This document shows, in pieces, positions 15,978 to 48,100 of a stretch of DNA of 64,000 nt (within the stretch, counting starts at the first letter, position 1; every line of letters starts with the position of its first letter). The notes beneath the pieces were generated by a model. That model searched no databases, was not told the DNA's origin, and worked only from the letters and a program-made list of their open reading frames with translations. The stretch is from contig NZ_CP097127.1 in NCBI RefSeq assembly GCF_023330665.1, positions 2,480,001 to 2,544,000 on the forward strand. The letters run 5' to 3'. Origin of the DNA: Conexibacter sp. S30A1. GTDB taxonomy: Bacteria > Actinomycetota > Thermoleophilia > Solirubrobacterales > Solirubrobacteraceae. The position numbers were made by a program, and so were the translations under genes.

Positions 15978-18473
<2,496 letters not shown>

Positions 18474-18500: not shown

Positions 18501-21038
<2,538 letters not shown>

Positions 21039-32196: not shown

Positions 32197-32270
<74 letters not shown>

Positions 32271-32369: not shown

Positions 32370-32621
32370 TTGCGCGCAATGCTCGTTAGGGACGCTGTCA
32401 GACCTTGGGTCGCCAAACTGCTTGGTCATGGCGCCGGGCTCACGCTCGACACCCACGTCCGCGTCATCGACGCACTCGACGACGCGCCCGGCTCGCGGCT
32501 GTCGAGCGATCTTCCAGGCGCGCTGAGCTTCGATCACGGGGCGTCGACGGGCCTCCGACTGCGGACGCGTGATCCAGATGTCGTCAATGCGCTTGTCTCG
32601 TCATCGTGGCTGGTGGTCTGA
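32370..32621 (+). pseudogene. C-terminal remnant of a tyrosine recombinase
   Basis: The frame reads VRPWVAKLLGHGAGLTLDTH, then VRVIDALDDAPGSRL, matching the LGH box and following helix of phage-type integrases. At the catalytic tyrosine position (nine residues after the LGH histidine) there is His (DTH for DTY). The arginine and HxxR boxes upstream are absent. It lies 100 nt inside attL, where an island integrase is expected, and is a dead fragment. Confidence 0.6.
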
Positions 32622-32654
32622 AAGCAGTCGTCGCGCCGACACCCACGGCTGTAT

Positions 32655-32667: not shown

Positions 32668-32928
32668 GTGGACGACATGATCAACGGCGAGCCCGTCACT
32701 GAAGATCAGATCCGGGCTTGGCAGCAACAGGCGCGGGAAGGCCTCGATGTCGAGGGTCTGAGCCGCCGCGGACGTCCACGCCTCGGCAAGGCCGGCGAGA
32801 GCCCCGTCATCCCGGTGCGAATGGACGCGCAATTGCTTGAAGCGCTAACCAAACGCGCTGAGCACGACGGGGTGAGCCGCTCCCAAGCGATCCGCGACGC
32901 CGTCCGCGCCTGGATCCACGCGGCGTAG
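32668..32928 (+). CDS. Ribbon-helix-helix antitoxin, module 1
   Basis: 86 residues. N-terminal part GEPVTEDQIRAWQQQAREGLD followed by RRGRPRLG, then a C-terminal RHH fold VRMDAQLLEALTKRAEHDG-VSRSQAIRDAVRAW. The same layout (acidic start, Glu-Gly-Asp/Tyr-Asp segment, GRP(R/S)L, RHH) recurs in the antitoxins at 40322 and 45237. The stop codon shares a base with the start of the adjacent toxin frame, which carries a nonsense codon. It is expected to bind its own promoter. Confidence 0.8.
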   Translation: MDDMINGEPVTEDQIRAWQQQAREGLDVEGLSRRGRPRLGKAGESPVIPVRMDAQLLEALTKRAEHDGVSRSQAIRDAVRAWIHAA

Positions 32929-33167
32929 TGCGCATCCACCAGTAGGCTCTGAGCCACGGGATCGAAGCCGACGACGCGATCTACGCCGCCGAGAACTGGG
33001 TCTTCGCAGCCCCACAGAACGACGAGAGCCCGATGCCAGAGTTCCGGCTCGGCTTCGACCCACACGGAAGGCTGCTTGAACTCGTCGTACTCGTCTTCGA
33101 CAGCGGCAATCAGATGCTGATTCATGCCATGAAGGCACGCAAGCAGTACCTCGCGCTCCTGCCGTAG
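32928..33167 (+). pseudogene. Small toxin of module 1, interrupted by an amber codon
   Basis: Frame GTG 32928 to TAG 33165: VRIHQ-stop-ALSHGI, then EADDAIYAAENWVFAAP, FRLGFDPHGRLLELVVLVFD and NQMLIHAMKARKQYLALLP. The layout (HGI, DPxGxLLEV/LVVL, LIHAM, RxxY) matches the intact homologue at 40057-40335. A TAG at 32943-32945 stops translation at codon 6, where the family usually has Ser; TCG to TAG would be one change. No good restart codon follows. The toxin is therefore probably dead while its antitoxin is open. Confidence 0.7.
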
Positions 33168-33441
33168 AAGCCGCCGTGCCGCTTCGCTCCAAAGCGACAC
33201 TTCGTCGCCCACGCGCTCGCCATCCCGGCTCGGATCCCCAAGTGAAAGATGTCATGTCCCGGTTGGCGTGAGCTGGTGGTGAAGGTGGCCGGCCCTCCAC
33301 GTCGAACGGCGTTGTAGGCACGCGCGGATTGCGGCCGCGCGGCCGGCCAATCGAAGAGGAGGTACCGACCGTGGTTGACGGTATGGGATGCGCTGCCTGC
33401 TGGGTGGGTGACGTCGAGGTGCCAGCTGGGGAGGTGAGGTC
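33168..33441 (+). other. IS110 left non-coding end, candidate bridge RNA region
   Basis: 274 nt without a gene between the dead toxin and the IS110 transposase. It contains inverted GC-rich segments such as GGCCGGCC near 33288 and 33340. In the IS110 group the non-coding left end encodes the bridge RNA that specifies target and donor DNA. The exact element boundary is not visible because IS110 elements lack terminal inverted repeats. Confidence 0.4.
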
Positions 33442-34464
33442 GTGCCTGTCGTGATGGGTTTGGACCAGCACCGGGCGCAGATCGCGGCTGAGTGGATCGA
33501 CACCATGACGGGCGAGGTTTCGCGCACCCGGATCGCGCCAGCGGACCGGGCCGCTGTCAGGGAGTTCCTGGAGCCGTTCGCTGATTGTGGTCTTGAGGTC
33601 GCGTTGGAGGCAACGACCGGCTGGCGGTTTGTTGTTGAGGAGCTCGAGCGGGTCGGTGCCGAGGTGCACTTGGCGGAGGCCGCAGAGGCCAGTGCGCTGA
33701 AGGGCAAGAAGAAGCGTGCGAAGACCGACTTCGCTGACGCCCGGCATCTGCGCGAGCTGCTGCTCATCGGGCGGATCCCGGAGTCATGGATCCCGCCGGC
33801 GCACATCCTTGATCTCCGCGCCCGGGTCAGGACCCGGCATCTGCTCTCGCATCAGCGAACGGAGTGGCAGCAGCGGATGCACGCAGTGCTCTATCACCAC
33901 GGTGTTCCTCAACGCCGTGACCTGCTCAACCAAGCCAACCGCGCCAGGCTGGCCGGGCTAGATCTCCCCGCTGCGGCACGCGAGCAGCTTGAGATCGCGT
34001 TGCATGTGATCGACGCGATCGAGCAACGCCTGATCCCGTTTGACAAAGAGCTCGCCCGGATCGCAAAGGCGCAACCGGGGTGCCGCACCCTGATGTACGA
34101 GATCTACGGGGTCGGCGCGCTGACCTCGGTCACGATCCTTGCCGAGCTCGGAGACGTGCGCCGCTTCCAGAACTCTCGTGATGTGGTCCGCTATAGCGGG
34201 ATGGACATCACCGTCCACCAATCCGACGATCATCGCGCCCCTGGTCACCTCTCCCGTCAAGGACCACCCGCGCTGCGCTGGGCGCTCGATGAGGCAGCAC
34301 AACCCGCCCGGTTCCCAGCCAGCCCAGACCGCGCGTATTACGAACAGCTCGCCGCCCGCATCGGGGGCAACCGCGCGTGCTTAGCACTGGCACGCAAGCT
34401 GCTCAAACGCAGCTACCACCTGCTCAAGAACCTCGGCGACCAGGCAATCGCACCGGTCGCCTAA
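33442..34464 (+). CDS. IS110 family transposase
   Basis: 340 residues. N-terminal RuvC-like DEDD domain begins MGLDQHRAQIAAEW and includes LEATTGWRFVVEEL and KTDFADARHLRELL. The C-terminal Tnp domain contains YEIYGVGALTSVTILAELGD and RYSGMDITVHQSDDH with the conserved serine region. Length is typical and no stop interrupts it. GTG 33442 or ATG 33454 could start it. It inserted next to the decayed toxin of module 1. Confidence 0.92.
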   Translation: MPVVMGLDQHRAQIAAEWIDTMTGEVSRTRIAPADRAAVREFLEPFADCGLEVALEATTGWRFVVEELERVGAEVHLAEAAEASALKGKKKRAKTDFADARHLRELLLIGRIPESWIPPAHILDLRARVRTRHLLSHQRTEWQQRMHAVLYHHGVPQRRDLLNQANRARLAGLDLPAAAREQLEIALHVIDAIEQRLIPFDKELARIAKAQPGCRTLMYEIYGVGALTSVTILAELGDVRRFQNSRDVVRYSGMDITVHQSDDHRAPGHLSRQGPPALRWALDEAAQPARFPASPDRAYYEQLAARIGGNRACLALARKLLKRSYHLLKNLGDQAIAPVA

Positions 34465-34795
34465 AACCCCTGTCACGCGGCAAGCCCGAGAACACCCGAT
34501 GACCCGCGGTCAGCTCCCGGCAAGACTGCTGCCGACCCGCCACCACGACGGGAACGGCCCAGAAAGAATGAGCGGCCGCAACACCATCTGCCGGAACACC
34601 CCATCAAACATCATGCCGCCGACCTGGAGCCAACCCGGGCCGAGTGCCGAAGTAAGCCAGGGCGTCCGCGGACACAACCTGACCCCCAACCACGCCCATT
34701 CACCGCCGACCGACACACCGACCTCCACCGACAACGAAGACTCCCGGACCGGCACTTGACACGAACGCCGAGACAAGTAAGCAGTAGCCCCGCGG
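34465..34795. other. Gene-free flank downstream of IS110
   Basis: 331 nt, Pro/Thr/Arg-rich in every frame and without a credible ORF or clear repeat. Part may be the right end of the IS110 element. Confidence 0.3.
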
Positions 34796-35185
34796 TCAGC
34801 TGACGAGTTCGACGCCGGGCCGTGCTCGGGCGAGCCGGCGGTCGGTTGTGAGTAGCGTTGCGTGGAGTGCGGCGGCCAGTTCGACGTATAGGGCGTCGAC
34901 GAGCCGGAGCTGGTCGCGCTCTGCCCAGGCGCCTGCCAGCAGACGAGCCAGAGGATGACGGACGATAGGGGCGAGAGCGATTTCGCTCAGGGCAGCCGAA
35001 ACGGTTTTGGCGTCAAGCTCACCCGCGCGATGCAGTCGACCTAGCGCGGACAGTGCTTCGGCATCGAGGTGCGCTGGAGCGTGTAGCTCACAACCCCGGA
35101 GCCGCTGACGAACCGCAACTCCCTGCGGCGTGCCGATCAACGCCTCGACCAGCGCGGAGGCGTCGAGAACTAGTGTCTCAGGCAC
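34796..35185 (-). CDS. vapC: VapC-type PIN domain toxin
   Basis: 129 residues. PIN-domain acidic residues are visible: LVLDASALVEAL (Asp1), LDAEALSALGRL (Glu), LRLVDALYVELAAAL (Asp) and LLTTDRRLARA (Asp). Expected ribonuclease toxin cleaving tRNA or rRNA. The start overlaps the last 8 nt of the vapB gene. Confidence 0.9.
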   Translation of the reverse strand: MPETLVLDASALVEALIGTPQGVAVRQRLRGCELHAPAHLDAEALSALGRLHRAGELDAKTVSAALSEIALAPIVRHPLARLLAGAWAERDQLRLVDALYVELAAALHATLLTTDRRLARARPGVELVS

Positions 35186-35399
35186 CGAGCTCGTCGCGGG
35201 CTTCGTCCAGGGCGCTGATCACGGCGTCGTGGGTCAGATCAGCATTGGGCAAACGCTGCAGCCGCTCCAGCCAAATATCGGTCTCGAGGCTGGCGAGCGC
35301 GCCTCGTATCGCGTCCTGCGCGACGCCCGAGACGTTCACGCCTGCGGCGCGAGCGCGGTCGGCGAGGTCGTCGGGAAGGTACACGTTCACTCGAGCCAT
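35178..35399 (-). CDS. vapB: VapB-type RHH antitoxin
   Basis: 73 residues from ATG 35399: MARVNVYLPDDLADRARAAG, then VNVSGVAQDAIRGAL, is a CopG/RHH fold, followed by a C-terminal toxin-binding tail DLTHDAVISALDEARDELGA. A longer open frame upstream is not used because TATAGT lies 6 nt before this ATG. It overlaps vapC by 8 nt. Confidence 0.88.
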   Translation of the reverse strand: MARVNVYLPDDLADRARAAGVNVSGVAQDAIRGALASLETDIWLERLQRLPNADLTHDAVISALDEARDELGA

Positions 35400-35405
35400 A
35401 CACAC

Positions 35406-35411
35406 ACTATA
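35406..35411 (-). promoter_or_regulatory. -10 box TATAGT of vapBC 1
   Basis: TATAGT on the minus strand, 6 nt before the vapB ATG; no Shine-Dalgarno site. It lies within alternating GT-rich sequence. Confidence 0.6.
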
Positions 35412-35542
35412 CACACAACCCGCGTCGGTATCGCTTCGGCCTCGGCGACGGCTCGAAGCCGGCGAGTGCATGGGCGACAACGTGGTGCTGGTCCACATCG
35501 GGCGCGATGATTTGGGAGCACCCAACCCTGCGACGAGCTTCG

Positions 35543-35833
35543 ATGGCCGCGTACTTCATCTATGCCCGTAGCGAGATCACCGACGCCGAGGTCTCGAGGC
35601 GCTACAGCGAACTGGCAGTTCCGCAGATCCATCAGTTCGGAGGCGAAGTGCTCGTGGCACGTGGAGCGGTTCAACCGCTCGAGGGAGATCTCAACCCCCA
35701 GTCGGTCACGATCTTGAGATTCGACGATCCCGCCGCCTTGATGCGCTGGTACGAGTCCCCCAAGTATGCGCCGCTCAAACAGATGCGGCTCGAGAGCAAC
35801 GTCGGCGACATCATCGTCGTCGACCAAGCCTGA
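35543..35833 (+). CDS. DUF1330 family protein
   Basis: 96 residues from ATG 35543: MAAYFIYARSEITDAEVSRRY, then GGEVLVARGAVQPLEGD and ILRFDDPAALMRWYESPKY, the dimeric ferredoxin-like fold of DUF1330. Function of the family is unknown. It is divergent from vapB and antisense to the frame that continues from the truncated integrase. Confidence 0.85.
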   Translation: MAAYFIYARSEITDAEVSRRYSELAVPQIHQFGGEVLVARGAVQPLEGDLNPQSVTILRFDDPAALMRWYESPKYAPLKQMRLESNVGDIIVVDQA

Positions 35834-36010
35834 CCGCCGGACGCCGCGATCGCCTACCACCAAGCCGAGCAGCCACAACCAACCGACTGACCCCCCCCGC
35901 ACCGAACTCTCCACCTGCGCTGCCAGCGACGCCCGGTCGCGACCAATCACCTGAGCCGTCGCCAGCGCGAACGACACCTCGCGCGACGTGTCGCGATCAT
36001 TGCCCTTGAC
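35834..36010. other. Gene-free segment beside the truncated integrase
   Basis: 177 nt. The minus-strand frame of the integrase runs on through it but loses family character right after the LGH box, so this is foreign or scrambled sequence that replaced the integrase C-terminus. Confidence 0.35.
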
Positions 36011-36610
36011 AAGATCACCCGCATAATGACCGAGTTGTCGTTGGATGACCACCAGCGGCACTCCTTCTCGGGACATCTCAACTGCGTGAGCGTGCCGGAG
36101 TTGGTGTGGTGCGAACCGGCGCCTGACCCCGGCGGCGGCAGCGGTGCGGTGCAGTTGGGCGCGAATGCTGGCGGGGCTGCACCGTCGGCCTCGCGTGGCT
36201 CCGTGCAGGATGCAGAAGAACGCTCCGACCGGCAGGGTCTTGCGCAGCTGGATCCATGGCTCGAGCTGGTCCCACGCCCAGCGGTCCATCCCGACCTCCC
36301 GGCGCTTGCCGCCCTTGCCTTGACGCACGAGGATCGCCCCACGGACGGGGTCAAGGTCTGTTTCGGCGAGCGCGAGCGCCTCGCTGATTCTCAGGCCGGC
36401 GCGCCACAGTACGATGATGAGCGCACGGAGTCTGACCCCGTCGGCATCGTCTCCCGCGCTGCGCATGACCGAGATGATCTCCTCGACAGTCGGCGGGTCA
36501 GGCGGATAGCGCAAACCCTTGTTGTGAGGCGTGCGGCCCTCGTGGAAGCTGGCGAGCGTGGCCGGCGACAGACGTCTGCCAGCACGATCCAGCGCTGAGA
36601 CTGATTGCAT
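36011..36610 (-). pseudogene. Tyrosine recombinase lacking the catalytic-tyrosine end
   Basis: ATG 36610 with GGAGG upstream. SAM-like N-terminus, then catalytic residues in order: AGLRISEAL (Arg74), GKGGKRREV, HQLRHAHAVEM (His169, Arg172) and QRQLGH (His195). Family members continue LGHxxxxTTxxYxH; here the frame goes on as YAGDLVKGND with no tyrosine at the required spacing and unrelated sequence after. The recombinase is therefore truncated at its active site and replaced beyond about 36020. Confidence 0.7.
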
Positions 36611-36850
36611 GACGTCCTCCTTGGGACGTAGATCGACACCACATCGTCGACCGCCATCACCGAGAGGAGGGAGAAAGCAATACTCCCGCGACCGACGCCG
36701 AAAGTAGTGGTGGCGTGGCATTTTGCTCGTCTTGTCCAGTTGGGCCGAGCAAGTGCTCTTAGCGCAAAGCGGCGGATCGCGCTTGCCCAAGCGCCCCCCG
36801 GACGCTAGGCTCACGACCCGCTGTCACCCGAGATTCCACACGTCGGCGAA

Positions 36851-37303
36851 GTGGACCCGACACACGTCGGTCCTCCCGATCTGATCCTGGAAGAGATCGT
36901 CCCGCTAAGCGAGGTGCCCGAGGACATTCGCAGCCGGTTCGAGGTCAAGCCAGAGACGGGTGAAGATGTGGCCGCCACCGTCCTGCCTCTAGCTGAGGGT
37001 GGGTTTCGAATCCCGGTTCCACCGCATGCCGCTGGCGCCCATTGGGCCAGCGTGACGTTCGCCGCACGAGCTCTGGCGCTCATCGAAGGCACCGATCAGC
37101 CGGACTACGACGACTATGACGATCCGTTTGTCTGGGTCTTCGCGCTCAGTGCCGAAGCTCCGGTCACCGGTGAGAAGATCGTCTCCGCTGGAGGCTTCGC
37201 CGGGTCCTCCACTCAGACCGAATATCAGAAGGGCGAGGCGCCCAGGCGTGGCAAACGCGCAAGCCTGTTCTCAGCGATCCGCACCGAGCCGCGAAACGCC
37301 TAG
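36851..37303 (+). CDS. Hypothetical protein, C-terminus formed by a transposon end
   Basis: 150 residues, GTG start. Acidic, with EEIVPLSEVPEDIRSRFEVK, PQ-type loops and a Tyr/Asp-rich run DQPDYDDYDDPFVWVFAL; no membrane segment. Not recognised. Its stop codon lies inside the long inverted repeat that begins at 37299, so the original C-terminus was probably lost to the insertion. Confidence 0.5.
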   Translation: MDPTHVGPPDLILEEIVPLSEVPEDIRSRFEVKPETGEDVAATVLPLAEGGFRIPVPPHAAGAHWASVTFAARALALIEGTDQPDYDDYDDPFVWVFALSAEAPVTGEKIVSAGGFAGSSTQTEYQKGEAPRRGKRASLFSAIRTEPRNA

Positions 37304-37647
37304 TTCGACTTGGTCCCTGAAAGTCGTGATCTTGTGACGAGTTTTTCTTGACAGCGCGGCGGTCGAAGAGGACGATGGCGATGGGCCTGCGATCAGATTC
37401 CGCCTGGGAGAACGACCCACTGCGGCCCCAGGGTCCGCGTGCTGGAGGTTGTGCCCGTCATAGGCAGTGCCGGCGCACGGTTGATGCTGCGCTCAGGTGC
37501 TGAGCGCGCCGTCTCGTGCTGCCCGGATCCGGCGAGGAGGCAGGACGAGAATCGGGAGGGCCGGCTTTGCCGGACGGCCTCACCGCCCGCGATGGGGGAG
37601 GCCGGGAGGGGGGCTGACCCCCTCCCGTTAGATGAGTAGTGCCACGG
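37299..37647. repeat. Left arm of a 350-bp inverted repeat
   Basis: Begins CCTAGTTCGACTTGG and ends GAGTAGTGCCACGG. The reverse complement is at 38731-39080 with about six substitutions and one indel. It contains strong hairpins (GGGAGGGGG.../...CCCCCTCCC; CCGGCTTTGCCGG). The transposase stop codon abuts its inner edge. Confidence 0.95.
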
Positions 37648-37649
37648 GA

Positions 37650-38636
37650 TTAGGCGGTGTAGTCGACCAGCGCGCGGGTGGGGCGTCCGAGTTCGTGGTT
37701 GAGCATGACGGCGGCGGCGAGGGCGGCGAAGCGTGCGCATAGGCGGACGCGGAGGTTGGAGAGGGTGCGCGCGCCGTGACGCTCCAGGGTGAGGATGTCT
37801 TTGAAGGTCCAGAAGATCGATTCGATCCGTTGGCGGATCGGCGCGAGATGCAGCTGGTGGGGTTTTGCGTGGGTGCGCCGTGGCTGGGGAGTGATCTCAG
37901 AGGCCGGTCGGAGCGCCGGGGTCGATGCTGCCGCGGTGCTGGCGGCTTGACGCTTCTCGTCCTTGCGACGGGGACGGTGGATCGTCGCGTCGAGCTCAGC
38001 GAGCTCGGCCTCGAACTCCTTGCCGCGGAAGTTCTTATCGCCGATCAGCATCAGCATCACCCCGGGCTGATGCTCGCACCGCGCGACCATCTGCAGGCAC
38101 ACGAGCTTCTCGTCGATCTTCGGGGAGGTCAAAGCCAACGCCCGCGGGGTGCCGTCGGGGGCGAACAGGGCGTGCAGCCGGAATCCGTAGAAGTAGCGGC
38201 TGTGGCTGGCGCAATACCCGTAGTCGGCGGCGTTAGCGAGCGCGTCAGTCAGGCTGGAGTGCCCGCCGCGCTTGACCGTCTCCCGCGATCGGGCGCACTC
38301 CACTGGGGTGGAGTCGACCAGCAGCATGTCGTCCATGTATCCCGCGCTGCGGCGGGCGAGCTCGCTGATCAGCGCCTCGATCTGCCGCGAGAGCCGCAGC
38401 CGTCGCTTGTGGTAGGCGGTTCGCTCCGGCAGGTGGGGGAACAGATGCCCGATCTGCCGGGGCGCGAGCGCGAGGAACCAATAATCGGACGGGATCCCCA
38501 TGATCGACTGCGCGATCGAGATGGTGATGATCTCCGCATCAGTGATCTTCCGACGCGCGTTTCCGGGCCGTTGAGGCAGGAAATCGTCAACGATGCAGTA
38601 AACAACCGTAAGCAGCAGGTCGAGGTTGGCGTCCAT
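37650..38636 (-). CDS. IS982-like DDE transposase
   Basis: 328 residues. DDFLPQRPGNARRKITDAEI, MLLVDSTPVECARS (first catalytic Asp), MLIGDKNFRGKEFEAEL (second Asp) and PIRQRIESIFWTFKDILTLERHGARTL (Glu region) are typical of IS982. Open throughout. Unusually, it sits between 350-bp inverted repeats rather than the short terminal repeats of IS982. Confidence 0.88.
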   Translation of the reverse strand: MDANLDLLLTVVYCIVDDFLPQRPGNARRKITDAEIITISIAQSIMGIPSDYWFLALAPRQIGHLFPHLPERTAYHKRRLRLSRQIEALISELARRSAGYMDDMLLVDSTPVECARSRETVKRGGHSSLTDALANAADYGYCASHSRYFYGFRLHALFAPDGTPRALALTSPKIDEKLVCLQMVARCEHQPGVMLMLIGDKNFRGKEFEAELAELDATIHRPRRKDEKRQAASTAAASTPALRPASEITPQPRRTHAKPHQLHLAPIRQRIESIFWTFKDILTLERHGARTLSNLRVRLCARFAALAAAVMLNHELGRPTRALVDYTA

Positions 38637-38730
38637 CGAGTCCCTCCACAGGGTCGGCGCTGGGTATTGAGTACCGCCAACTTCGACCTGCGCTGTTATG
38701 TCTCCTTCAACGCCACGACCCCGCCGCCGG

Positions 38731-39080
38731 CCGTGGCACTACTCATCTAACGGGAGGGGGTCAGCCCCCCTCCCGGCCTCCCCCATCGCGGTCGGTGAGG
38801 CCGTCCGGCAAAGCCGGCCCTCCCGATTCTCGTCCTGCCTCCTCGCCGGATCCGGGCAGCACGAGACGGCGCGCTCAGCACCTGAGCGCAGCAGCAACCG
38901 TGCGCCGGCACTGCCTATGACGGGCACAACCTCCAGCACGCTGACCCTGGGCGCCGCAGTGGGTCGTTCTCCCAGGCGGAATCTGATCGCAGGCCCATCA
39001 CCACCGTCCTCTTCGACCGTCGCGCTGTCAAGAAAAACTCGTCACAAGATCACGACTTTCAGGGACCAAGTCGAACTAGG
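38731..39080. repeat. Right arm of the 350-bp inverted repeat
   Basis: About 98% identical to the reverse complement of 37299-37647; ends CCAAGTCGAACTAGG. No target-site duplication is visible at the outer edges. Confidence 0.95.
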
Positions 39081-39193
39081 GCGCGCAGAGCCAGAACGCT
39101 GCTGCGTTGACGGAATAGCACTCATCCATCGTGATTGAGCGCCGCGAGCGCTCCGCCACGGATCCGTGCCTGCGGGTGGTCGATCGGCGCGGA

Positions 39194-39460
39194 TCATCGG
39201 TCGTAGACGTCACGACGGTGTCCGAGCGTGACCACGACGATCAGCAGGACGTCATCCTCGATCGTGTAGATCACGCGGTAGTCACCAACCCGCACCCGCC
39301 ATGCCGGCCGGCCGCGTAGCGGCCGTGAAGCCGGTGGACGCGGATCCTCAGCCAACAACGCAATCGCCGCCTGGAGTCGACGAGCCACGGGCGGGTCGAG
39401 CTTCCGCAATGCCCGCACCGCCGCCGGGCGCAACTCGATCCCGTAGCGGCTCACTCCCAA
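39194..39460 (-). CDS. relE: RelE/ParE-type toxin
   Basis: 88 residues. YGIELRPAAVRALRKLDPPVARRL, RPLRGRPAWRVRVGDYRVIYTI and VVVTLGHRRDVYDR are the RelE superfamily core with the usual basic residues and the C-terminal H-R-x-x-V-Y. Predicted ribosome-dependent mRNA endonuclease. The start overlaps its antitoxin by 10 nt. Confidence 0.9.
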   Translation of the reverse strand: MGVSRYGIELRPAAVRALRKLDPPVARRLQAAIALLAEDPRPPASRPLRGRPAWRVRVGDYRVIYTIEDDVLLIVVVTLGHRRDVYDR

Positions 39461-39699
39461 CCGAGGTCGGCCTTGGCCTGATCCCAGGGTATGTTCGCGC
39501 CCTCCTCGGCCATCGCCGCATCAAACGCCTCAACGTCCTCGGCATCCTCCAGTGCAGCGACAAGCCGAGCGTAATGCTCAGGACTGACCAGCACAGCCGC
39601 CGCACGGCCGTAGCGCTCGAGCACCACGGGCTCGGTCTGTGCCTGGTCGACGGCGCCAGGGAGATTCTGGCGGGCCGCACTAACAGTCATCGTCGTCAT
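39451..39699 (-). CDS. Phd/YefM- or RelB-type antitoxin
   Basis: 82 residues from ATG 39699: MTTMTVSAARQNLPGAVDQA and VVLERYGRAAAVLVSPEHYARL are the Phd fold, followed by an acidic toxin-binding tail ending DQAKADLGWE. TACGCT lies 6 nt before the ATG, so the transcript is probably leaderless. The longer open frame upstream is not supported. Confidence 0.85.
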   Translation of the reverse strand: MTTMTVSAARQNLPGAVDQAQTEPVVLERYGRAAAVLVSPEHYARLVAALEDAEDVEAFDAAMAEEGANIPWDQAKADLGWE

Positions 39700-39705
39700 G
39701 CATAG

Positions 39706-39711
39706 AGCGTA
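39706..39711 (-). promoter_or_regulatory. -10 box TACGCT of the RelBE-like module
   Basis: Minus-strand TACGCT, 6 nt upstream of the antitoxin ATG. Confidence 0.4.
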
Positions 39712-40021
39712 CAAGACGGCACGCGTGTTGTACAGTCTCAACCGTCGGACTTCGCTCGCGTCCCAGCACCAAAGCGGATCTGTCGATCCAACGCACGAGA
39801 GACGCGCAACTCGCCAACACCGAGACGCGGGAGATTTCGTGTCCGCCAGCTCGGTGCCTATGCATGGCCTCAGGAACGCCGCGATCGGCCGCGGCGCCGA
39901 CACAGGCGCTTCATCGCAGACGCGGTAAGTCGCCATAGCGCTCGTTTGCTCTACAGGGCAGTTTCGGCCGAAGCGATCGTCTCGTGGGGTGTGGGCCTCG
40001 AACGATTTTTGGCAGACTATA

Positions 40022-40050
40022 TTGACTCAGCCCTTTATGTCTGCCAGAAT
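40022..40050 (+). promoter_or_regulatory. Promoter of toxin-antitoxin module 2
   Basis: TTGACT (40022-40027), 17-nt spacer, CAGAAT (40045-40050), then 6 nt to GTG 40057. It is the best complete -35/-10 pair among the island's toxin-antitoxin promoters. Confidence 0.55.
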
Positions 40051-40056
40051 GTGCGG

Positions 40057-40335
40057 GTGGAGATCAGGTGGGCGAGATCCGCAACCAAGCACCGGGTGAG
40101 CCGTGCTCGTAGCGAGCATGCGATCCGCAATGCCGTTGCGATCATCGACCAGCCCGCTCCGGCAGACAGCGCCAGTCGCGACGACCGGATCGTGTTTCTC
40201 GGCCCCGATCGCGACGGCACGATGCTGGAGGTGATGGCCGTCGAGACTGAGGCCGGGTTGCTGGTGATCCACGCGATGCTGATCCGTCGCAAGTACCTTG
40301 ACCATCTCGAAGGAGCTACCGATGAGCAGCAGTGA
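40057..40335 (+). CDS. Small toxin of module 2 (intact copy)
   Basis: 92 residues from GTG 40057 (GTG 40051 possible): VEIRWARSATKHRVSRARSE, then RIVFLGPDRDGTMLEVMAVE and TEAGLLVIHAMLIRRKYLDHL. This is the family represented in broken form at 32928 and 45533; I know it as a BrnT/RelE-like toxin partner of RHH antitoxins in actinobacteria, usually unnamed. It overlaps its antitoxin by 14 nt; gene order is toxin first. Confidence 0.75.
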   Translation: MEIRWARSATKHRVSRARSEHAIRNAVAIIDQPAPADSASRDDRIVFLGPDRDGTMLEVMAVETEAGLLVIHAMLIRRKYLDHLEGATDEQQ

Positions 40336-40600
40336 AGATGACCGCGTCATCGCGGTCACCAAGGGTGGGGCGAAGATCACCCAGAAGATCGTCGACGAGC
40401 TGGCAGCTGAGGCAGAGCGCGGCTATGACCTCTCGCTCGGGCGGCGCCGCGGCCGGCCGTCTCTGGACCTGGGCGTGTCCCCACGTGTGACCTTTCGCGT
40501 CACAGGCGAGCTACAGGAACGAGCGCGCCAGCGCGCGCAGCGAGAGGGAAAGTCGCTCAGCGAACTCGCCCGGGACGCGTTGGCCGAGTACGTGAAATAG
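40322..40600 (+). CDS. Ribbon-helix-helix antitoxin, module 2
   Basis: 92 residues, ATG 40322 with AAGGAG upstream. KITQKIVDELAAEAERGYD, RRRGRPSLDLG, then RHH FRVTGELQERARQRAQREGK-SLSELARDALAEYV. Same architecture as the antitoxins at 32668 and 45237. Translation is linked to the toxin by overlap. Confidence 0.82.
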   Translation: MSSSEDDRVIAVTKGGAKITQKIVDELAAEAERGYDLSLGRRRGRPSLDLGVSPRVTFRVTGELQERARQRAQREGKSLSELARDALAEYVK

Positions 40601-40706
40601 CCACACAGCCTCGAGCGGCAAGCCTGTTTGGACCGCGGACGATCGCATTCGCCTCGGCAATCTCTCTTGGCCGATGAGCGCTATGGCGACGAGGCGTGCT
40701 CCTGCG

Positions 40707-41108
40707 TCACTGAGAGATGAGCGTGGATGGCAGCTGGGCTAGTCCAGGGCGGACGAGATCTCGCTCGTCACAACTGGCCAGGGTCACTCCGAGCCTCCGG
40801 GCTGCGGCGACGTAGGCCGCGTCGTAGGCGCTGAGGCCGTGCTCGGTGGTGAGCTGCGCCACCTCAGCACCGAGTTGTGGGTCTACCCGCACCAGCGTTC
40901 CGAGCTCGGCGATTGCCCATATGCGTCTTGCCAGCCTGTCTGCCGCGTCCGGATCCTCCCAGCGTACGATCGCGACGTTCGTGGTCTCGTAGAAGGCCAG
41001 CTCCACAGTTGCCAAGTCGCCTGATCGCAGCAGCGCGAGCGCGGCCTGATGTTCGCGGTCGTCGGCGTCCTCGGCGGCGAGCAACACGCTCGCATCAAGA
41101 AAGATCAC
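40707..41108 (-). CDS. vapC: VapC-type PIN domain toxin
   Basis: 133 residues: MIFLDASVLLAAEDADD (Asp), LAFYETTNVAIV (Glu), HGLSAYDAAYVAAARRLG (Asp) and LASCDERDLVRPGL (Asp). Intact PIN active site. The start ATG overlaps the stop of its antitoxin by 4 nt. Confidence 0.9.
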   Translation of the reverse strand: MIFLDASVLLAAEDADDREHQAALALLRSGDLATVELAFYETTNVAIVRWEDPDAADRLARRIWAIAELGTLVRVDPQLGAEVAQLTTEHGLSAYDAAYVAAARRLGVTLASCDERDLVRPGLAQLPSTLISQ

Positions 41109-41329
41109 TGCGGCCGGCCGGCTTTGAGATCCCGGACAGCGTTACCGCCATGCCGCCGCGCCGTTCCCTCCAGAGCGGACATCTGCTCAGAGAGGCGTCG
41201 CTGACGCTCGCCCAGGCCGACCTCGGCCAGCTCGCGGATGGTGGCGCTGCGTGTGCTGCCACGGGCGTTCGCCTGGGCGTCCACGCGTGCGAGGAACTCA
41301 TCGGGCAGAGAAATCATCACCTTGGCCAT
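41105..41329 (-). CDS. vapB: VapB-type RHH antitoxin
   Basis: 74 residues: MAKVMISLPDEFLARVDAQA, ARGSTRSATIRELAEVGLG is the RHH, then a helical tail with QRRLSEQMSALEGTAR. ATG 41329 with TATACT 6 nt upstream. Partner of the adjacent PIN toxin. Confidence 0.88.
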   Translation of the reverse strand: MAKVMISLPDEFLARVDAQANARGSTRSATIRELAEVGLGERQRRLSEQMSALEGTARRHGGNAVRDLKAGRPQ

Positions 41330-41335
41330 ACTGAG

Positions 41336-41341
41336 AGTATA
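41336..41341 (-). promoter_or_regulatory. -10 box TATACT of vapBC 2
   Basis: Minus-strand TATACT, 6 nt before the vapB ATG; no Shine-Dalgarno site. Confidence 0.6.
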
Positions 41342-41553
41342 CCCGGTGTTACCACGGCCTCCAAGTGGTCGTTCCGCTATTGCTTTGCGGAGAGCGGCTT
41401 CGACAGTCAGACGATCGCCTTGGCGACGGACCGCTCGTATACCGCAGCTACTCGCATTTGATGGTGGTCGTGGGATCTGGCAAGCGGGATCTGTTGCGGA
41501 CGCTCATAATCCGAGTCTGAGGAAACTCACGAGGAGGGAGGAGGTGCGCCCGA

Positions 41554-42741
41554 ATGCTTTACGACCCTGTGGAGCACCGGCCGCTGGGTGGCGATGCGTG
41601 GAGCGAGCAGCTGGCTCGTGACGCGATCTGGCGGATCGCCGCCGATGCGATTGGCGAGTACCAGGGACCCGAGACCCTCTGGCCCAACGCTGCGGAGGAC
41701 CTAGAAGGCGAGGCCGATGCACCCTTTCGTAACGCATATTTTGGGGCTGCCGGCATGGCTTGGGCGTTGGATTATCTGGCCCGACGGGAGGTGGCCCCCG
41801 AGTTCGGCGCGGCTCGAGAACTAGCGCAGCGGATCCACCATGATTTCATGCTTGCTCCCGAGCTGACATCGCTTGAACCCGCACCGGCCCCGTCGTTGTT
41901 TTTTGGTGAGAGCGGGATTTTGCTCGCGGCCGAAGCGCTATTGGGGGACGGATCCCAGCTCGCCTTTCTTGAGGCGGCGATTAACGGCAGCCTGGACCAC
42001 CCCTCGCTGGAGCTCTGCTGGGGATCGCCGGGCACGATGACCGTCGCCCTGGCGTTATGGCGCGCATCCGGCGAGGAGCGCTGGCGCACGGCCTGGATAG
42101 CGTCTGCCGAGCGGCTTCTTTCAGAGTGGAGAGACCTCGTGTGGACCCAAGATCTCTACGGAACCCGTCAGCAATATGTTGGTGCCGGACACGGGTTCGC
42201 GGGAACCGCGTTCGCGTTACTCGGCGGCCAGGACTTGCTCGGAGAGCGAGCTGCGATGCTCGTCGAGCGGGTTCGTGATGTTCTCATCGCACTGGCCCAA
42301 GTCGAGGGGACGCTCGCGCAATGGTTTCCGCTCGCGGGCACATCGGAGGGTCGCCACCCCGTTCAGTGGTGCCACGGCTCGCCCGGAATCGTGACGTCAC
42401 TAGCAGGGCTACCGCACGACGATGAAACAGACCGGCTTTTACAGGCTGGTGGTGAGCTGACCTGGCAGGCCGGGCCACTCTGCAAGGGCGCAGGACTCTG
42501 CCACGGCACCGCCGGCAACGCCTACGCCTTCCTCGCGCTGTTCGCCCGGTCACAAGACGAGCTTTGGCTGAGGCGCGCGCGAGCGTTCGCGATGGACGCC
42601 GTAGCCGACATCGAACGACGCCGGCTCAAGCGCGGACGTGGACGCTACTCGCTGTACACCGGCGACATTGGAGTGGCGATGCTGCTTCAAGCGTGCCTCG
42701 CGGGCGATCGCCGGTTCCCCTTCCTCGAGGCAGCAATCTAG
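41554..42741 (+). CDS. LanC-like (lanthionine synthetase C family) protein
   Basis: 395 residues with GGAGGGAGGAGG before the ATG. Alpha-toroid repeats with the family's HGxxG signatures: FFGESGILLAAEALL, WGSPGTMTVALALW, GAGHGFAGTAFALLGG, QWCHGSPGIV and LCHGTAGNAYAFLALF. The zinc ligands (Cys in WCHGSPG, Cys-His in CHGTAG) are present, so metal binding and cyclase chemistry are possible. No lanthipeptide precursor, dehydratase or transporter is nearby, making it an orphan more like LanCL proteins. It is flanked by vapBC and a methyltransferase. Confidence 0.88.
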   Translation: MLYDPVEHRPLGGDAWSEQLARDAIWRIAADAIGEYQGPETLWPNAAEDLEGEADAPFRNAYFGAAGMAWALDYLARREVAPEFGAARELAQRIHHDFMLAPELTSLEPAPAPSLFFGESGILLAAEALLGDGSQLAFLEAAINGSLDHPSLELCWGSPGTMTVALALWRASGEERWRTAWIASAERLLSEWRDLVWTQDLYGTRQQYVGAGHGFAGTAFALLGGQDLLGERAAMLVERVRDVLIALAQVEGTLAQWFPLAGTSEGRHPVQWCHGSPGIVTSLAGLPHDDETDRLLQAGGELTWQAGPLCKGAGLCHGTAGNAYAFLALFARSQDELWLRRARAFAMDAVADIERRRLKRGRGRYSLYTGDIGVAMLLQACLAGDRRFPFLEAAI

Positions 42742-43051
42742 TCCCCTGCAGACACTGACTCCCAGATGCGCAATGCGCGAGCCGGCGATCGCTTTGGCCC
42801 AGCTACGGCGGGTGGCCCTGGCAAGCGCATTGGCGACCCGGCGCGTGTCCTGGTTCTGGCGAGGAGCGGGTCTGATGGCCGTGGCCGGTGTAGATCTGCT
42901 CTGTGGTTGGGGCGTGCACCGTCGCCTGCTCGAATCAACCCCGGAACGTTCGTAAGGCGGACCTGTGACGGGCTGTCGCGTTTGGTTATGGTTCCGAAGC
43001 GTGACTTTCGATGCATCGTCAGCCGAGCCCCGCAATTGGGTTCCGGTCGCG
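42742..43051. other. Gene-free gap with a short dispersed repeat (copy 1)
   Basis: 310 nt between convergent genes. TTGGCGACCCGGCGCGTGTC followed by CTGGTTCTGGCGA (42830-42862) recurs with changes at 48069-48100 and 55201-55241, always between genes of the island. No ORF is credible. Confidence 0.5.
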
Positions 43052-43801
43052 CTAGCGACGACGAGCCTCGATTAGGTGTCGCGTGGAATGGGCGATGAAC
43101 GGGCCATCGCGCTCGATGCGGTCGTGGAGTTCTCGCAGTCGGGAGCGGTACTGCTCAACCGTGAATCCTGGCAGCCACCAGACGACTTTGCGCAACAGGT
43201 AGACGACCGCGGCAACGTCGTGGATCACCATCCGCGTTCGGGCGGTCTGGACGTCGATGATCTCCAACCCCGCTGCCTGCGCGGCGGTAACCTCATCGCG
43301 GGGATCCCGAGCGGCGGCCCCCGTCTGGGGACCGAGAAAGAATTCGATGAGCTCGAATGCGCTCCTCGGTCCGACGTGTTGAGCGAAGTAGATCCCCCCG
43401 GGTCGCAACACCCGCGCGATCTCGTCCCACCAGACCGTTGCCGGATGACGACTGCTCACCAGGTCAAATGCGGCTTCCGCAAACGGCAACGGCGGCTCAT
43501 CGGGGTCCGCGACCACAACCACACCACGGGGATGCAACCGGCTCGTGGCAGCCAGGACATTCGGCGGCCAGGACTCCGTGGCGACTGCCGTCAGAGGAAA
43601 CGAATGAGCCTCCGCCAGCACCTCGCCACCCTCGGTCTGGATATCAAGCGATGCCTGCGCCGCGGCGAGCCGTTCAGCAAGACGAGCCGCGTATCCCCAA
43701 GGCGGTCGCTCCTCGGTGGCACGGCCGGCGAGCCACGAGAAGTCCCAGCCGCTGATATCTGCGCCCTCGCTGAGCGCGATCAACTCCTCAAAGCTCTCCA
43801 C
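43052..43801 (-). CDS. SAM-dependent methyltransferase (class I)
   Basis: About 249 residues from GTG 43801, where VESFEELIALSE begins the family-like part; the frame is open for 95 more codons upstream. DISGWDFSWLAGRATEERPPWGY, LDIQTEGGEVLAEA (SAM motif I region), PLPFAEAAFDLVSSRHP and WWDEIARVLRPGGIYFAQHVG are characteristic. Substrate unknown. It is downstream of and codirectional with a GNAT acetyltransferase. Confidence 0.8.
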   Translation of the reverse strand: MESFEELIALSEGADISGWDFSWLAGRATEERPPWGYAARLAERLAAAQASLDIQTEGGEVLAEAHSFPLTAVATESWPPNVLAATSRLHPRGVVVVADPDEPPLPFAEAAFDLVSSRHPATVWWDEIARVLRPGGIYFAQHVGPRSAFELIEFFLGPQTGAAARDPRDEVTAAQAAGLEIIDVQTARTRMVIHDVAAVVYLLRKVVWWLPGFTVEQYRSRLRELHDRIERDGPFIAHSTRHLIEARRR

Positions 43802-44009
43802 TTCCCTATCTTCGCGGGTTACGCCGACGATCCTCGCCCCGAAGCGCCCACACGAACGAAATGTGAAGAGGCCGCCGAACGGCTGAGAGTGGCCTAAGAT
43901 CAGCGAGCACGCTCTCGCCGGGACCTGCTTCTCCTCACCGGCGGGCACGTCAGGGATGAAGCGGCCGGACCCGCGTGCGCGGAATGCTGGCTCAGTCCGC
44001 GCATGTGGC

Positions 44010-44492
44010 CTACAAAGCCTTGAAGAAGCGCACGGCGGGCAGTGGGGTGTAGCCGGTCTTCTCGTACAGCCGTCTCGCCGGAGCATGACCGGGATCCCCG
44101 CCGGTTTCGATCATGGCTGTCCGCATCCCTGACTCTCGCATCCAGTCCGTCGCGATTTCCGTCAGCGCAGCACCGATGCCTCGGTTCTGGACGCACGGAT
44201 CGACCGCGATCATGTGCACCTCGCCCATAGCCTGCTCGACGTGGAGCTTGGCGGCGACGAAACCGAGAATCCGTCCCTCCGCGTCCTCAGCCACCCAGAC
44301 TCGCTGGTCTGAATCGCCGAGTACCGCTCGCACCTGCGCCGCCTGGCCAGCGCGCCAATCGCCCCGCAGTCGCGCAAACAACTCCTCTCCGAGGGTTTCG
44401 TGGAGCGATCCGAACACAGGCTCCCATGCGCGCAACGAGAGCACGACGATCGCCTCCTGGTCCGAGGGCCGGAAATCGCGAAGCGCAGTCAT
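44010..44492 (-). CDS. GNAT family N-acetyltransferase
   Basis: 160 residues. MTALRDFRPSDQEAIVVLSL opens the fold; VHMIAVDPCVQNRGIGAALTEIA is the acetyl-CoA pyrophosphate loop (Q/RxxGxG/A); ARRLYEKTGYTPLPAVRFFK closes it. Substrate unknown. Codirectional with the methyltransferase, 208 nt apart. Confidence 0.9.
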   Translation of the reverse strand: MTALRDFRPSDQEAIVVLSLRAWEPVFGSLHETLGEELFARLRGDWRAGQAAQVRAVLGDSDQRVWVAEDAEGRILGFVAAKLHVEQAMGEVHMIAVDPCVQNRGIGAALTEIATDWMRESGMRTAMIETGGDPGHAPARRLYEKTGYTPLPAVRFFKAL

Positions 44493-44546
44493 AGCGAAAG
44501 ACTCCCACAGACGCCCCGAGGGCCACGGAGGCAGGGGTTTTCGGCG

Positions 44547-44807
44547 CTATTTCTGGTAGTGGTAACGAGCCTGAAGGATCACGAGGTCATCGTTGAGGAC
44601 GCGGTAGACGAGTCGGTGCTCATCGGTGATTCGTCGTGACCACGTCCCGGTGATTCCGTACTTGAGTGGCTCTGGTTTCCCGATTCCGGATGTCGGGTCG
44701 CGCAGCGCGTCATCGATCAGCCGGTTGATCCGCTTCAGGATCGAGCGATCGGACTGCTGCCAGTGGCAATAGTCGTCCCAGCCTTGGGGAGTGAAGACAA
44801 GCCTCAC
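44547..44807 (-). CDS. yoeB: YoeB/Txe-type toxin
   Basis: 86 residues: MRLVFTPQGWDDYCHWQQSD, KRINRLIDDALRDPTSGIGKPEPLK split by the GKPE motif, WSRRITDEHRLVYRV and ILQARYHYQK with the C-terminal His-Tyr. All catalytic family residues (Glu, Arg, His, Tyr) are in place. mRNA interferase acting at the ribosomal A site. Overlaps yefM by 4 nt. Confidence 0.95.
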   Translation of the reverse strand: MRLVFTPQGWDDYCHWQQSDRSILKRINRLIDDALRDPTSGIGKPEPLKYGITGTWSRRITDEHRLVYRVLNDDLVILQARYHYQK

Positions 44808-45052
44808 TCGCGATCGAGCGGATGCTCTGCGAATTCGCCGCGTTCGGCGGCCTCGGCGGCATCAAGCAAGCGGCGAGCATTTGCGGGAGAGCGGAACAGA
44901 TAGGCGGTCTCCTGCCATGCTGCGTAATCCTCGGCGGCCATCAGTACCGCGTTGCCGCGCTTGGACGTGATCTCGATCGCAGTGCGGTCGTCGTTGACCT
45001 TCTCGATGAGCGGGAACAACGCCCGCCGTGCTTCGCTTGCTGTGATCGCCAA
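44804..45052 (-). CDS. yefM: YefM/Phd-type antitoxin
   Basis: 82 residues: MAITASEARRALFPLIEKVN, AIEITSKRGNAVLMAAEDYAAWQET split by the typical NAVLM, YLFRSPANARRLLDAAEAA. ATG 45052 with GGGAGG upstream, so unlike the other island modules it has a leader. It should repress its own operon with YoeB as co-repressor. Confidence 0.94.
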   Translation of the reverse strand: MAITASEARRALFPLIEKVNDDRTAIEITSKRGNAVLMAAEDYAAWQETAYLFRSPANARRLLDAAEAAERGEFAEHPLDRE

Positions 45053-45068
45053 CGGACCTCCCTTGGTC

Positions 45069-45084
45069 GTACCGGAAATGGTAC
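45069..45084. promoter_or_regulatory. Inverted repeat upstream of yefM, candidate operator
   Basis: GTACC (45069-45073) and GGTAC (45080-45084) flank a 6-nt AT-rich spacer, 17 nt before the yefM start. YefM operators are short palindromes in this position. Confidence 0.45.
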
Positions 45085-45236
45085 CACAGGGGTTGTTTCG
45101 CGACGAGCGTCTCTTGCTTTGCTCGAAACGGGTGCATCTTCACCCACAGCTCGGCGGTTGTGCTTTGCGCGGGAAGGTGGAGCCGGCGCCCGATGTTGGT
45201 GCCGAAGTTGACCTTATCTTGCGGGTTGTCGCTGGG

Positions 45237-45536
45237 TTAGCGGTGTCGCGCGACGTATTCGTCTAGCGCTTCGCGGCTGACGTCCGCCAACCGACGACCC
45301 TGTTGGTGGGCGATCTCTTCAAGGGCCGAGCGGACATCGGGCCGGACACGCACAGTAAGCGGCGGGGTATGTGCGCTACCGCCGATCAGCGACGGACGAC
45401 CGGCCCGCCGCTGCTCGAGCACGCGCTCGGCGAGCTGCTTGGCGCCCGCTTCGGTCAGACGAGAGCCGTCGGGCAGGCGGACCTCTTCCTCGTCGAGGTC
45501 GATGTCAGGACCGATTGGCCCGATCTGTTCTGTCAT
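45237..45536 (-). CDS. Ribbon-helix-helix antitoxin, module 3
   Basis: 99 residues: LPDGSRLTEAGAKQLAERVL, RRAGRPSLIGG, then RHH VRVRPDVRSALEEIAHQQGR-RLADVSREALDEYVA. Architecture matches the antitoxins of modules 1 and 2. The ATG at 45536 overlaps the stop of the toxin's ancestral frame, as ATGA, supporting a formerly coupled toxin-antitoxin operon. Confidence 0.82.
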   Translation of the reverse strand: MTEQIGPIGPDIDLDEEEVRLPDGSRLTEAGAKQLAERVLEQRRAGRPSLIGGSAHTPPLTVRVRPDVRSALEEIAHQQGRRLADVSREALDEYVARHR

Positions 45537-45782
45537 CGGTTGCGTCCTCTCTTTCGGAGACTGGTCGGCATCACGTGGATGACCAGGAGGCAGTCAGCGG
45601 GTCTTGATCGCGACGATCTTCAGCTCGCGCTGACGGCTGTCGTTTGCGATCCAGGTCAGCGTCGGCTGGTTGGTCTGCGGGTCGGTCACGATCGTCGGCT
45701 CAGAAGTGGACATGACGTGGTAGGTGTGGGCTTTGCCGATCTTGTGTCGCTGTGCGCTACGGCTGAACCTGATCGACTTCAC
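45533..45782 (-). pseudogene. Small toxin of module 3, frameshifted
   Basis: GTG 45782: VKSIRFSRSAQRHKIGKAHT, then IVTDPQTNQPTLTWIANDSR and ELKIVAIKTR-stop. The missing family end is encoded in the next frame: ADCLLVIHVMPTSLRKRGRNR, ending in a TGA that overlaps the antitoxin ATG. Removing one C from the CCC run near 45600 would restore a single 82-residue toxin. It is therefore a one-base frameshift in an otherwise intact homologue of the module 2 toxin. Confidence 0.75.
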
Positions 45783-45788
45783 CCAACA

Positions 45789-45794
45789 ATTGTG
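45789..45794 (-). promoter_or_regulatory. -10 box CACAAT of toxin-antitoxin module 3
   Basis: Minus-strand CACAAT 6 nt before GTG 45782. Confidence 0.4.
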
Positions 45795-47491: not shown

Positions 47492-47744
47492 AACGGGTCT
47501 CGCGCCTCGGCAGCCGACAACGGCCCGAAGGGGCTTGCAGGCTCACGGACGAGTCCCACGACGACATCCGGCTACCACCGCGCCGAGACCCGCTTTCACG
47601 CGGCCGCGCGCGTCTCAGACGCGGCTCAACGGCACCCGCTTTGCGCGGAACGGGAGGCACCGCGATCACAATCGCTTTCAGCGTTTGGGCCATTCGCCAC
47701 TGGCTATAGGTTTGGCGACAAGTTGCGCCTGCTCGTTGTTCGGG

Positions 47745-48005: not shown

Positions 48006-48068
48006 CGTAAGTGACGTTATCTGACGATCGCTTCCATCGGGCCACTGAGGAACCGACGTGCGATTCCG

Positions 48069-48100
48069 TTGGCGACCAGGCGCGCGTCCTGGTTCTGGCG
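48069..48100. repeat. Short dispersed repeat, copy 2
   Basis: TTGGCGACCAGGCGCGCGTC followed by CTGGTTCTGGCG; matches copy 1 at 42830-42862 in about 29 of 32 positions. Confidence 0.55.

What the first reader, a model, noticed from the sequence alone, without database searches (positions are those of the whole stretch)
32668..45794. One toxin-antitoxin family in three copies: antitoxins open, two of three toxins broken
Three modules share an RHH antitoxin with a GRP(R/S)L linker and a small toxin with LLEV/LLEL and V/LIHxM motifs. Module 2 (40057-40600) is intact. Module 1's toxin has TAG at codon 6; module 3's toxin needs removal of one C to restore the frame and the ATGA overlap with its antitoxin. 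Gene order differs (antitoxin first in module 1, toxin first in 2 and 3). Inference: toxin loss is tolerated or selected while antitoxins persist, perhaps as anti-addiction factors or repressors that cross-act on the intact copy.
Basis: partly seen in the sequence, partly recalled or inferred. Interest (0 to 1): 0.75.

Follow-up and report, generated by a model that had tools for sequence, protein, structure and literature searches.

The report
Broken toxin genes in mobile cassettes
A bacterium carries several small toxin-antidote gene pairs related to a recently described ribosome-cutting toxin; in two of three the toxin is broken but the antidote is kept, and some of these pairs seem to travel as swappable gene cassettes marked by a repeat that I did not find described.

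Summary
M1 (32677-33167), M2 (40057-40600) and M3 (45782-45237, minus) are homologous toxin-antitoxin modules. M2 is intact; the M1 toxin has an in-frame TAG at codon 6; the M3 toxin has a one-base frameshift. Both lesions recur in a second copy in this genome, so simple sequencing error is unlikely. A third M3-type antitoxin has no toxin.

The toxins match no Pfam, NCBIfam or PADLOC model but belong to the RelS family (PDB 9SDC, E=1e-15), with a BrnT-like fold. RelS is published with an HTH antitoxin; here the partner is ribbon-helix-helix. Of 162 loci, 25 toxins are broken, while 2 of 157 detected antitoxins carry a lesion. Recurrent toxin loss is supported; action of the orphan antitoxins on M2 is not.

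M1 and M2 are bounded by a ~58-bp repeat (46 copies listed) that marks off genes or gene pairs in several arrays; shared DNA ends in it far more often than by chance. It lacks attC features, and no integron integrase was found among 19 of 24 tyrosine recombinases scanned. Recombination at the repeat is inferred; the enzyme is unknown.

The parts
32677..32928 (+). M1 antitoxin, RHH_1/CopG (alternative GTG start 32668)
   Evidence: PF01402 E=2e-8
32928..33167 (+). M1 RelS-type toxin, broken by TAG at 32943-32945 (codon 6)
40057..40335 (+). M2 RelS-type toxin, intact
40322..40600 (+). M2 antitoxin, RHH_1/CopG, overlaps the toxin
   Evidence: PF01402 E=5.5e-5
45533..45782 (-). M3 RelS-type toxin, broken by a one-base frameshift near 45600
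45237..45536 (-). M3 antitoxin, RHH-type by my own profile (69 bits); no Pfam family over its cut-off
32578..32637 (+). cassette-border repeat, left of M1
33201..33260 (+). cassette-border repeat, right of M1
35422..35480 (-). cassette-border repeat near a PIN-toxin pair (named by eye)
39927..39985 (+). cassette-border repeat, left of M2
40633..40693 (-). cassette-border repeat between M2 and the next TA pair
41374..41429 (-). cassette-border repeat upstream of that TA pair
42780..42837 (-). cassette-border repeat 39 bp after a LanC-like ORF
47662..47722 (-). cassette-border repeat (E=4e-5)
48022..48079 (-). cassette-border repeat (weaker, E=7e-3)
55152..55211 (-). possible cassette-border repeat (weak, E=0.05)
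36026..36610 (-). truncated tyrosine recombinase inside the array; 76-78% identical to one lying in two frames beside the M1-type cassette of G015
40707..41329 (-). PIN-toxin/antitoxin pair (VapBC-like, named by eye) in one inter-repeat interval
41554..42741 (+). LanC-like ORF (named by eye) in one inter-repeat interval

Best explanation
The three modules are type II toxin-antitoxin pairs whose toxin is a RelS/BrnT-type RNase and whose antitoxin is a ribbon-helix-helix protein. By analogy with RelS the toxin is expected to stop translation, perhaps by cutting the 3' end of 16S rRNA, while the antitoxin blocks it and represses the operon (inferred). M1 and M2 sit between copies of a ~58-bp repeat that marks off genes or gene pairs in several arrays of this genome and its genus; such units move or are copied as cassettes (inferred from shared DNA that ends in the repeats). 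The M1 toxin was disabled before or during copying, since both copies bear the same lesion; M3, not bounded by the repeat, was likewise duplicated in its broken state. Toxins are lost repeatedly because losing them is safe, while antitoxins stay because they cannot go first and may afterwards protect against open cassettes of the same type carried in the genus.
For: RelS membership: profile A1 hits 9sdc_C, E=9.8e-16, chain residues 1-76 of 77; RelS K9, H10, H64, R69 (paper sections read) fall on K11, H12, H72, R77 of M2. Fold: model pLDDT 88.4; 7vd7_A Z 9.8, rmsd 2.6, 83 aligned; BrnT 3u97 Z 7.2, rmsd 2.3, 69 aligned; Foldseek E 0.03 and 0.05, probability 1.00 and 0.97. RHH partner; toxin-RHH neighbours on plasmids of Cnuibacter, Rhodococcus opacus and Cellulosimicrobium. 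Shared lesions. Asymmetry. Cassettes: 46 repeat copies listed at E<0.5, none in two 19-kb control stretches; 24 of 116 HSP ends lie in repeats on both sides, permutation mean 0.14, maximum 3 of 1000; repeat found at E<=0.001 in 25 of 28 genomes of the genus and 6 of 33 other relatives.
Against: No function was tested. RelS was characterised with an HTH antitoxin. M1-type toxins have Ser and M3-type toxins Arg at the Lys position. No recombinase is tied to the repeat and excised circles were not looked for in reads. 16 of the 24 HSP ends compare M1-type cassettes with each other; 8 do not. 43 of 159 ends were left out of the test because one sequence holds no repeat. Selection on antitoxins is not proven (6 against 1). 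One antitoxin (L189) shows a frameshift beside an open toxin; L127 (contig edge) and L163 have a broken toxin and no antitoxin found. M3 is not bounded by the repeat. No Foldseek match reached E 0.001.
Confidence: 0.75

Rival explanations
1. Ordinary neutral decay: toxins break because losing them is safe and the antitoxins are simply not yet broken; neither the repeat nor selection on antitoxins plays a part in the pattern.
For: 17 of 25 broken toxins carry a single lesion and several are otherwise well conserved, i.e. young; the second-lesion contrast is small (6 against 1).
Against: Broken modules were copied; three near-identical M3-type antitoxins remain with no open toxin among the copies found; 22 of 23 broken-toxin loci with a detected antitoxin keep it open.
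Confidence: 0.45
2. Antitoxins 1 and 3 act in trans on toxin 2, as repressors or backup neutralisers.
For: Same toxin family and same antitoxin class.
Against: AT1 and AT2 33% identical, AT3 not listed in that search; M1-type and M2 toxins 28% identical.
Confidence: 0.08
3. The lesions are assembly or base-calling errors.
For: Single-contig genome of unknown sequencing method; the two M3 copies are nearly identical.
Against: The M1 copies are distinct (17 mismatches) and share the TAG; lesions concentrate in toxins, not in the adjacent antitoxins, across 162 loci.
Confidence: 0.05
4. The 58-bp repeat is a dispersed regulatory or intergenic repeat, not a recombination site.
For: No recombinase identified; some copies lie just upstream of TA pairs.
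Against: Other copies lie 4-54 bp after stop codons; shared DNA between arrays and species ends in it far more often than by chance.
Confidence: 0.2

Closest known systems
RelS-RelI of M. tuberculosis (PMC13284704: abstract, sections 21-23 and 26, first part of the discussion, and passages of a term search)
   Same: Toxin homologous over nearly its full length, with the key positions kept in M2; toxin-first order in M2 and M3
   Different: RelI is an HTH (ClpC2-like) antitoxin; M1-M3 have RHH-type antitoxins, and M1 has the antitoxin first. A RelI-type module exists elsewhere in this genome (L004; its antitoxin matches 9sdc_A at 1.4e-13)
BrnT-BrnA
   Same: Fold (3u97, 7vd7); RHH antitoxin and toxin-first order (the BrnA facts are partly recalled)
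   Different: No Pfam match of the M2 toxin; 18-20% identity in the structural alignments
Chromosomal integron cassette arrays
   Same: Sites close to stop codons, single genes or TA pairs between sites, TA-rich cargo, units shared between arrays (comparison with integrons partly recalled)
   Different: The repeat has no conserved hairpin, 1 of 46 copies has a GTTRRRY/RYYYAAC core, and none of 19 tyrosine recombinases scanned reaches the integron-integrase cut-off
Acinetobacter dif (pdif) modules (search listing and starts of abstracts only)
   Same: TA-rich modules bounded by short recombination sites
   Different: Here ~58 bp with two direct half-sites; the pdif geometry (28 bp, XerC and XerD arms) is recalled

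Membership tests
RelS toxins | Sequence homology to RelS (9SDC) over the whole chain | tested here: met
   family profile, E=9.8e-16, residues 1-76 of 77
RelS toxins | Lys-His near the N-terminus, His and Arg near the C-terminus (K9, H10, H64, R69) | tested here: met
   M2: K11, H12, H72, R77; the Lys is Ser in M1-type and Arg in M3-type toxins
RelS toxins | Cleavage of 16S rRNA in the anti-SD region | not testable with these tools
   needs an RNA assay
RelS-RelI system | RelI-type HTH antitoxin | tested here: not met
   partners of M1-M3 are RHH-type
BrnT-BrnA | BrnT fold | tested here: met
BrnT-BrnA | Pfam match of the toxin to BrnT | tested here: not met
   no Pfam family listed for the M2 toxin up to E=10, within HMMER's filters
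Integron | attC: palindromic site with GTTRRRY/RYYYAAC cores | tested here: not met
Integron | IntI integrase | tested here: inconclusive
   24 PF00589 matches in the genome, 19 scanned, best 124.4 bits against TIGR02249's cut-off 265; 5 not scanned; genome 93.8% complete
Integron | Arrays of site-bounded cassettes | tested here: met
   ORFs from my own simple caller
dif modules | XerC/XerD-type sites in alternating orientation | tested here: inconclusive
   only length, half-sites and orientation of the repeat were looked at

The most novel reading that the evidence does not exclude
The window lies in one of several arrays of a previously undescribed, integron-like gene-cassette system of a Solirubrobacterales genus: a ~58-bp site with two direct half-sites and no hairpin, moved by a non-IntI tyrosine recombinase, carrying TA pairs (including RelS-RHH pairs) and single genes as cassettes.
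Probability: 0.5. Interest if true: 0.88.

Novelty: new variant of a known kind. Interest (0 to 1): 0.68.

Why it matters
It places an unnamed toxin family found across Actinomycetota beside a characterised rRNA-cutting toxin, shows that the same toxin family pairs with two unrelated antitoxin classes, gives numbers for one-sided toxin decay, and points to a cassette system that would widen the notion of integrons beyond attC and IntI.

Tried and rejected
Looked for a named family: no Pfam, NCBIfam or PADLOC match for the toxins. First coordinates for two family scans had stops in frame and were corrected. Scans with alignment A1 failed as too diverse; the closer alignment A2 was used for genome contigs (80 of 138 relatives were kept by the tool). 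A first lesion script gave no alignments because of a wrong tblastn option; rerun. The third M3-type copy was first translated on the wrong strand, corrected.

Canonical attC: rejected. Rfam on three array stretches: only two group II intron matches. A recombinase tied to the arrays: tried; tyrosine recombinase matches lie in 4 of 22 array stretches (window, L281, L317, L318), so not consistently; 5 of the 24 recombinases of the genome were not scanned, one because my script took a neighbouring frame (L305). Paper searches for such cassettes listed only integrons or unrelated work; that is absence from capped listings, not proof.

Limits of the lesion count: L108 and L116 pass as intact only by coverage and look decayed (34% and 50% identity); 4 loci under 50% identity are set apart as uncertain, 3 with lesions in the last 10 residues as late, 1 as partial. 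From the phylum search I used the 49 best of 77 match rows outside the window's genome; from the family search every place listed.
Full report
What was checked. The window is positions 2480001-2544000 of a 3.46-Mb single-contig genome. Related loci with titles point to Solirubrobacterales: L167 is the same stretch as a locus of G012 (same genus) and is titled Solirubrobacterales, L154 that of G121 (same family), titled Solirubrobacteraceae; other titles are vaguer or odd (L155 says Chlamydiae). I read the three modules directly. The details of the finding hold: homologous frames, gene order, the TAG at codon 6 of the M1 toxin, the one-base frameshift of the M3 toxin, the intact M2.

Are the lesions real? 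The M1 cassette has a second copy at C1:417k, 97.2% identical over 641 bp, with the same TAG. The M3 module has a second copy at C1:2.788M, 99.7% over 713 bp, with the same frameshift. Three congeners (L010, L011, L012) have an open M1-type toxin and two (L023, L025) an open M3-type toxin. Other relatives carry other lesions: L013 a frameshift, L024/L112 a nonsense codon. A third M3-type antitoxin, at C1:471k, is open and has no toxin beside it. This genome thus holds three near-identical M3-type antitoxins and no open toxin of that type among the copies found.

What the toxin is. No Pfam, NCBIfam or PADLOC model lists it. A profile of 14 relatives matches PDB 9sdc chain C, the RelS toxin of M. 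tuberculosis, at E=9.8e-16 over residues 1-76 of 77. The RelS paper (PMC13284704; abstract, sections 21-23 and 26, first part of the discussion, passages of a term search) describes a BrnT-like RNase that cuts the 3' end of 16S rRNA and is blocked by RelI, an HTH antitoxin. The residues K9, H10, H64 and R69 fall on K11, H12, H72 and R77 of M2. The AlphaFold model of M2 (mean pLDDT 88.4) is closest to the Salmonella toxin 7vd7_A (Z 9.8, rmsd 2.6, 83 aligned) and BrnT 3u97 (Z 7.2, rmsd 2.3, 69 aligned); Foldseek gives these two E 0.03 and 0.05 and nothing below 0.001. M3-type toxins belong to the family: L023 scores 35.9 bits against a profile without them, best reported shuffle 10.5.

What is different. 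M1-M3 pair the toxin with a ribbon-helix-helix antitoxin: AT1 and AT2 match RHH_1 over its cut-off, AT3 only my own RHH profile. In the term search of the RelS paper, RHH occurs once, in a list of known M. tuberculosis TA families; the one ribbon-helix-helix occurrence was not among the passages shown. I collected 162 non-duplicate toxin loci: every place of the family search (146 genomes), the 49 best of 77 outside rows of the phylum search (396 genomes), 67 of the 80 loci of the genome-contig scan, one of two viral contigs and three plasmids. Of these, 122 have an RHH partner, 35 a RelI-like partner, 5 none found; the antitoxin comes first in 6. This genome also has a RelI-type module (L004; its antitoxin matches 9sdc_A at 1.4e-13). 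The toxin family thus sits beside two unrelated antitoxin classes.

Toxin decay is one-sided. A frameshift-aware alignment and its tally give 25 broken toxins of 162, with 3 late, 4 uncertain and 1 partial set apart. Of 157 detected antitoxins 2 carry a lesion: L111, beside a broken toxin, and L189, beside an open toxin, which goes against the simple logic and may be an error. L194's antitoxin is cut by a contig end. Of 23 broken-toxin loci with a detected antitoxin 22 keep it open; L127 (at a contig edge) and L163 have a broken toxin and none found. The adjacent antitoxin serves as an internal control against sequencing error. Six of the 23 loci carry a second toxin lesion against one antitoxin lesion, which only suggests that antitoxins stay under selection. 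Loci were sought by toxin, so badly decayed toxins are under-counted and solitary antitoxins are missed.

The flanks. M1-type cassettes in different genomes share DNA that ends near a repeated motif. Profiles of it gave a ~58-bp element: GTCGCC followed by a first half-site, a spacer of about 22 nt, and a second half-site in the same direction. One search lists 46 copies at E<0.5 in the window and eight array stretches, 44 of them at 15.4 bits or more, and none in two 19-kb control stretches; 20 shuffles of 30 kb of the window reached 11.3 bits at most. The profile was trained partly on these copies, so their scores are not independent. Eleven of its 22 training rows come from this genome, from four of the clusters; the clusters at 1.59-1.60M, 2.99-3.02M and 3.45M were found without training on them. 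R1 is found at E<=0.001 in 25 of 28 genomes of the genus, up to 55 copies, and in 6 of 33 other relatives with 1-3 copies.

Cassette evidence. With a simple ORF caller of my own, many intervals between copies hold one gene or one TA pair, with a copy 4-54 bp after the stop codon in several cases. Shared units: a 590-bp unit, 87% identical, in G026 (L012) and this genome (L285), both ends in repeats on both sides; a 741-bp stretch, 91%, in G015 (L013) and this genome (L279), one end in repeats; the M2 unit in G020 (L110), 90%, one end in repeats on both sides, the left repeat of G020 being too weak to be called there; the M1 unit in M1, L278, L010, L113 and L012, with most ends in repeats, and in L013 with ends 14-64 bp off. 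Test: of 159 ends listed, the 116 where both sequences hold repeats were kept; 24 lie in a repeat on both sides, where circularly shifted repeats give 0.14 on average and 3 at most in 1000 trials. 16 of the 24 compare M1-type cassettes with each other, 8 do not. M3 and its copies are not bounded by the repeat.

What the repeat is not. Fourteen single-strand folds (8 copies, 6 of them on both strands) are no more stable than shuffles (z -1.0 to +1.4); the alignment shows no consensus stem beyond three pairs without covariation; 1 of 46 copies has a GTTRRRY/RYYYAAC core on the repeat's strand. So it is not a canonical attC. Of 24 PF00589 matches in the genome I scanned 19 proteins, the window's fragment included; none reaches the integron-integrase cut-off of 265 bits, the best, 124.4, being XerD-like. 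In 4 of 22 array stretches a tyrosine recombinase match lies nearby. The truncated one in the window is 76-78% identical to one lying in two frames beside the M1-type cassette of G015: a lead from two arrays, no more.

How it most likely works. Shown: homology, fold, partner class, lesions shared by copies, one-sided decay, shared DNA ending in repeats. Inferred: RNase action on ribosomes, neutralisation and repression by the RHH protein, cassette mobility by site-specific recombination, protection by retained antitoxins against open same-type cassettes of congeners. Not supported: action of AT1 or AT3 on the M2 toxin.

Novelty. RelS-type toxins with RHH antitoxins are a new variant of a known kind; a search for papers holding both Rv2663 and RelS found only the RelS paper. 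The cassette arrays may be a new kind of system, but the recombinase is missing, and the searches of the paper library show only that I found no description. The mended counts of this version (16 of 24 ends, 19 of 24 recombinases) do not change my odds.

Noticed in passing
L279 3178-3621 (C1:471k): Third copy of the M3-type antitoxin, open, with no toxin beside it.
   Followed up: yes
L285 8575-9099 (C1:3448.6k): A RelS-RelI type module (HTH antitoxin) in the same genome, within another repeat array.
   Followed up: partly
L284 13532-15100: Large ORF with a TIR-like stretch (by eye) filling one inter-repeat interval; possibly a defence gene as cassette.
   Followed up: no
L285 14963-15394: ORF resembling a RelA/SpoT-type synthetase (by eye) in an array interval.
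   Followed up: no
L282 14372-14491 and 17638-17712: Two group II intron matches near the second M3 copy (17900-18612); they might bear on how M3 was duplicated.
   Followed up: no
L189: Protofrankia locus with an open toxin and an apparent frameshift in the antitoxin; against TA logic unless an error.
   Followed up: partly
32197-32270: tRNA-Ile (GAT) just left of M1, a possible border of the island.
   Followed up: no
L308-L320: 50 further repeat copies in 13 stretches of other genomes of the genus; cargo and recombinases there were only skimmed.
   Followed up: partly
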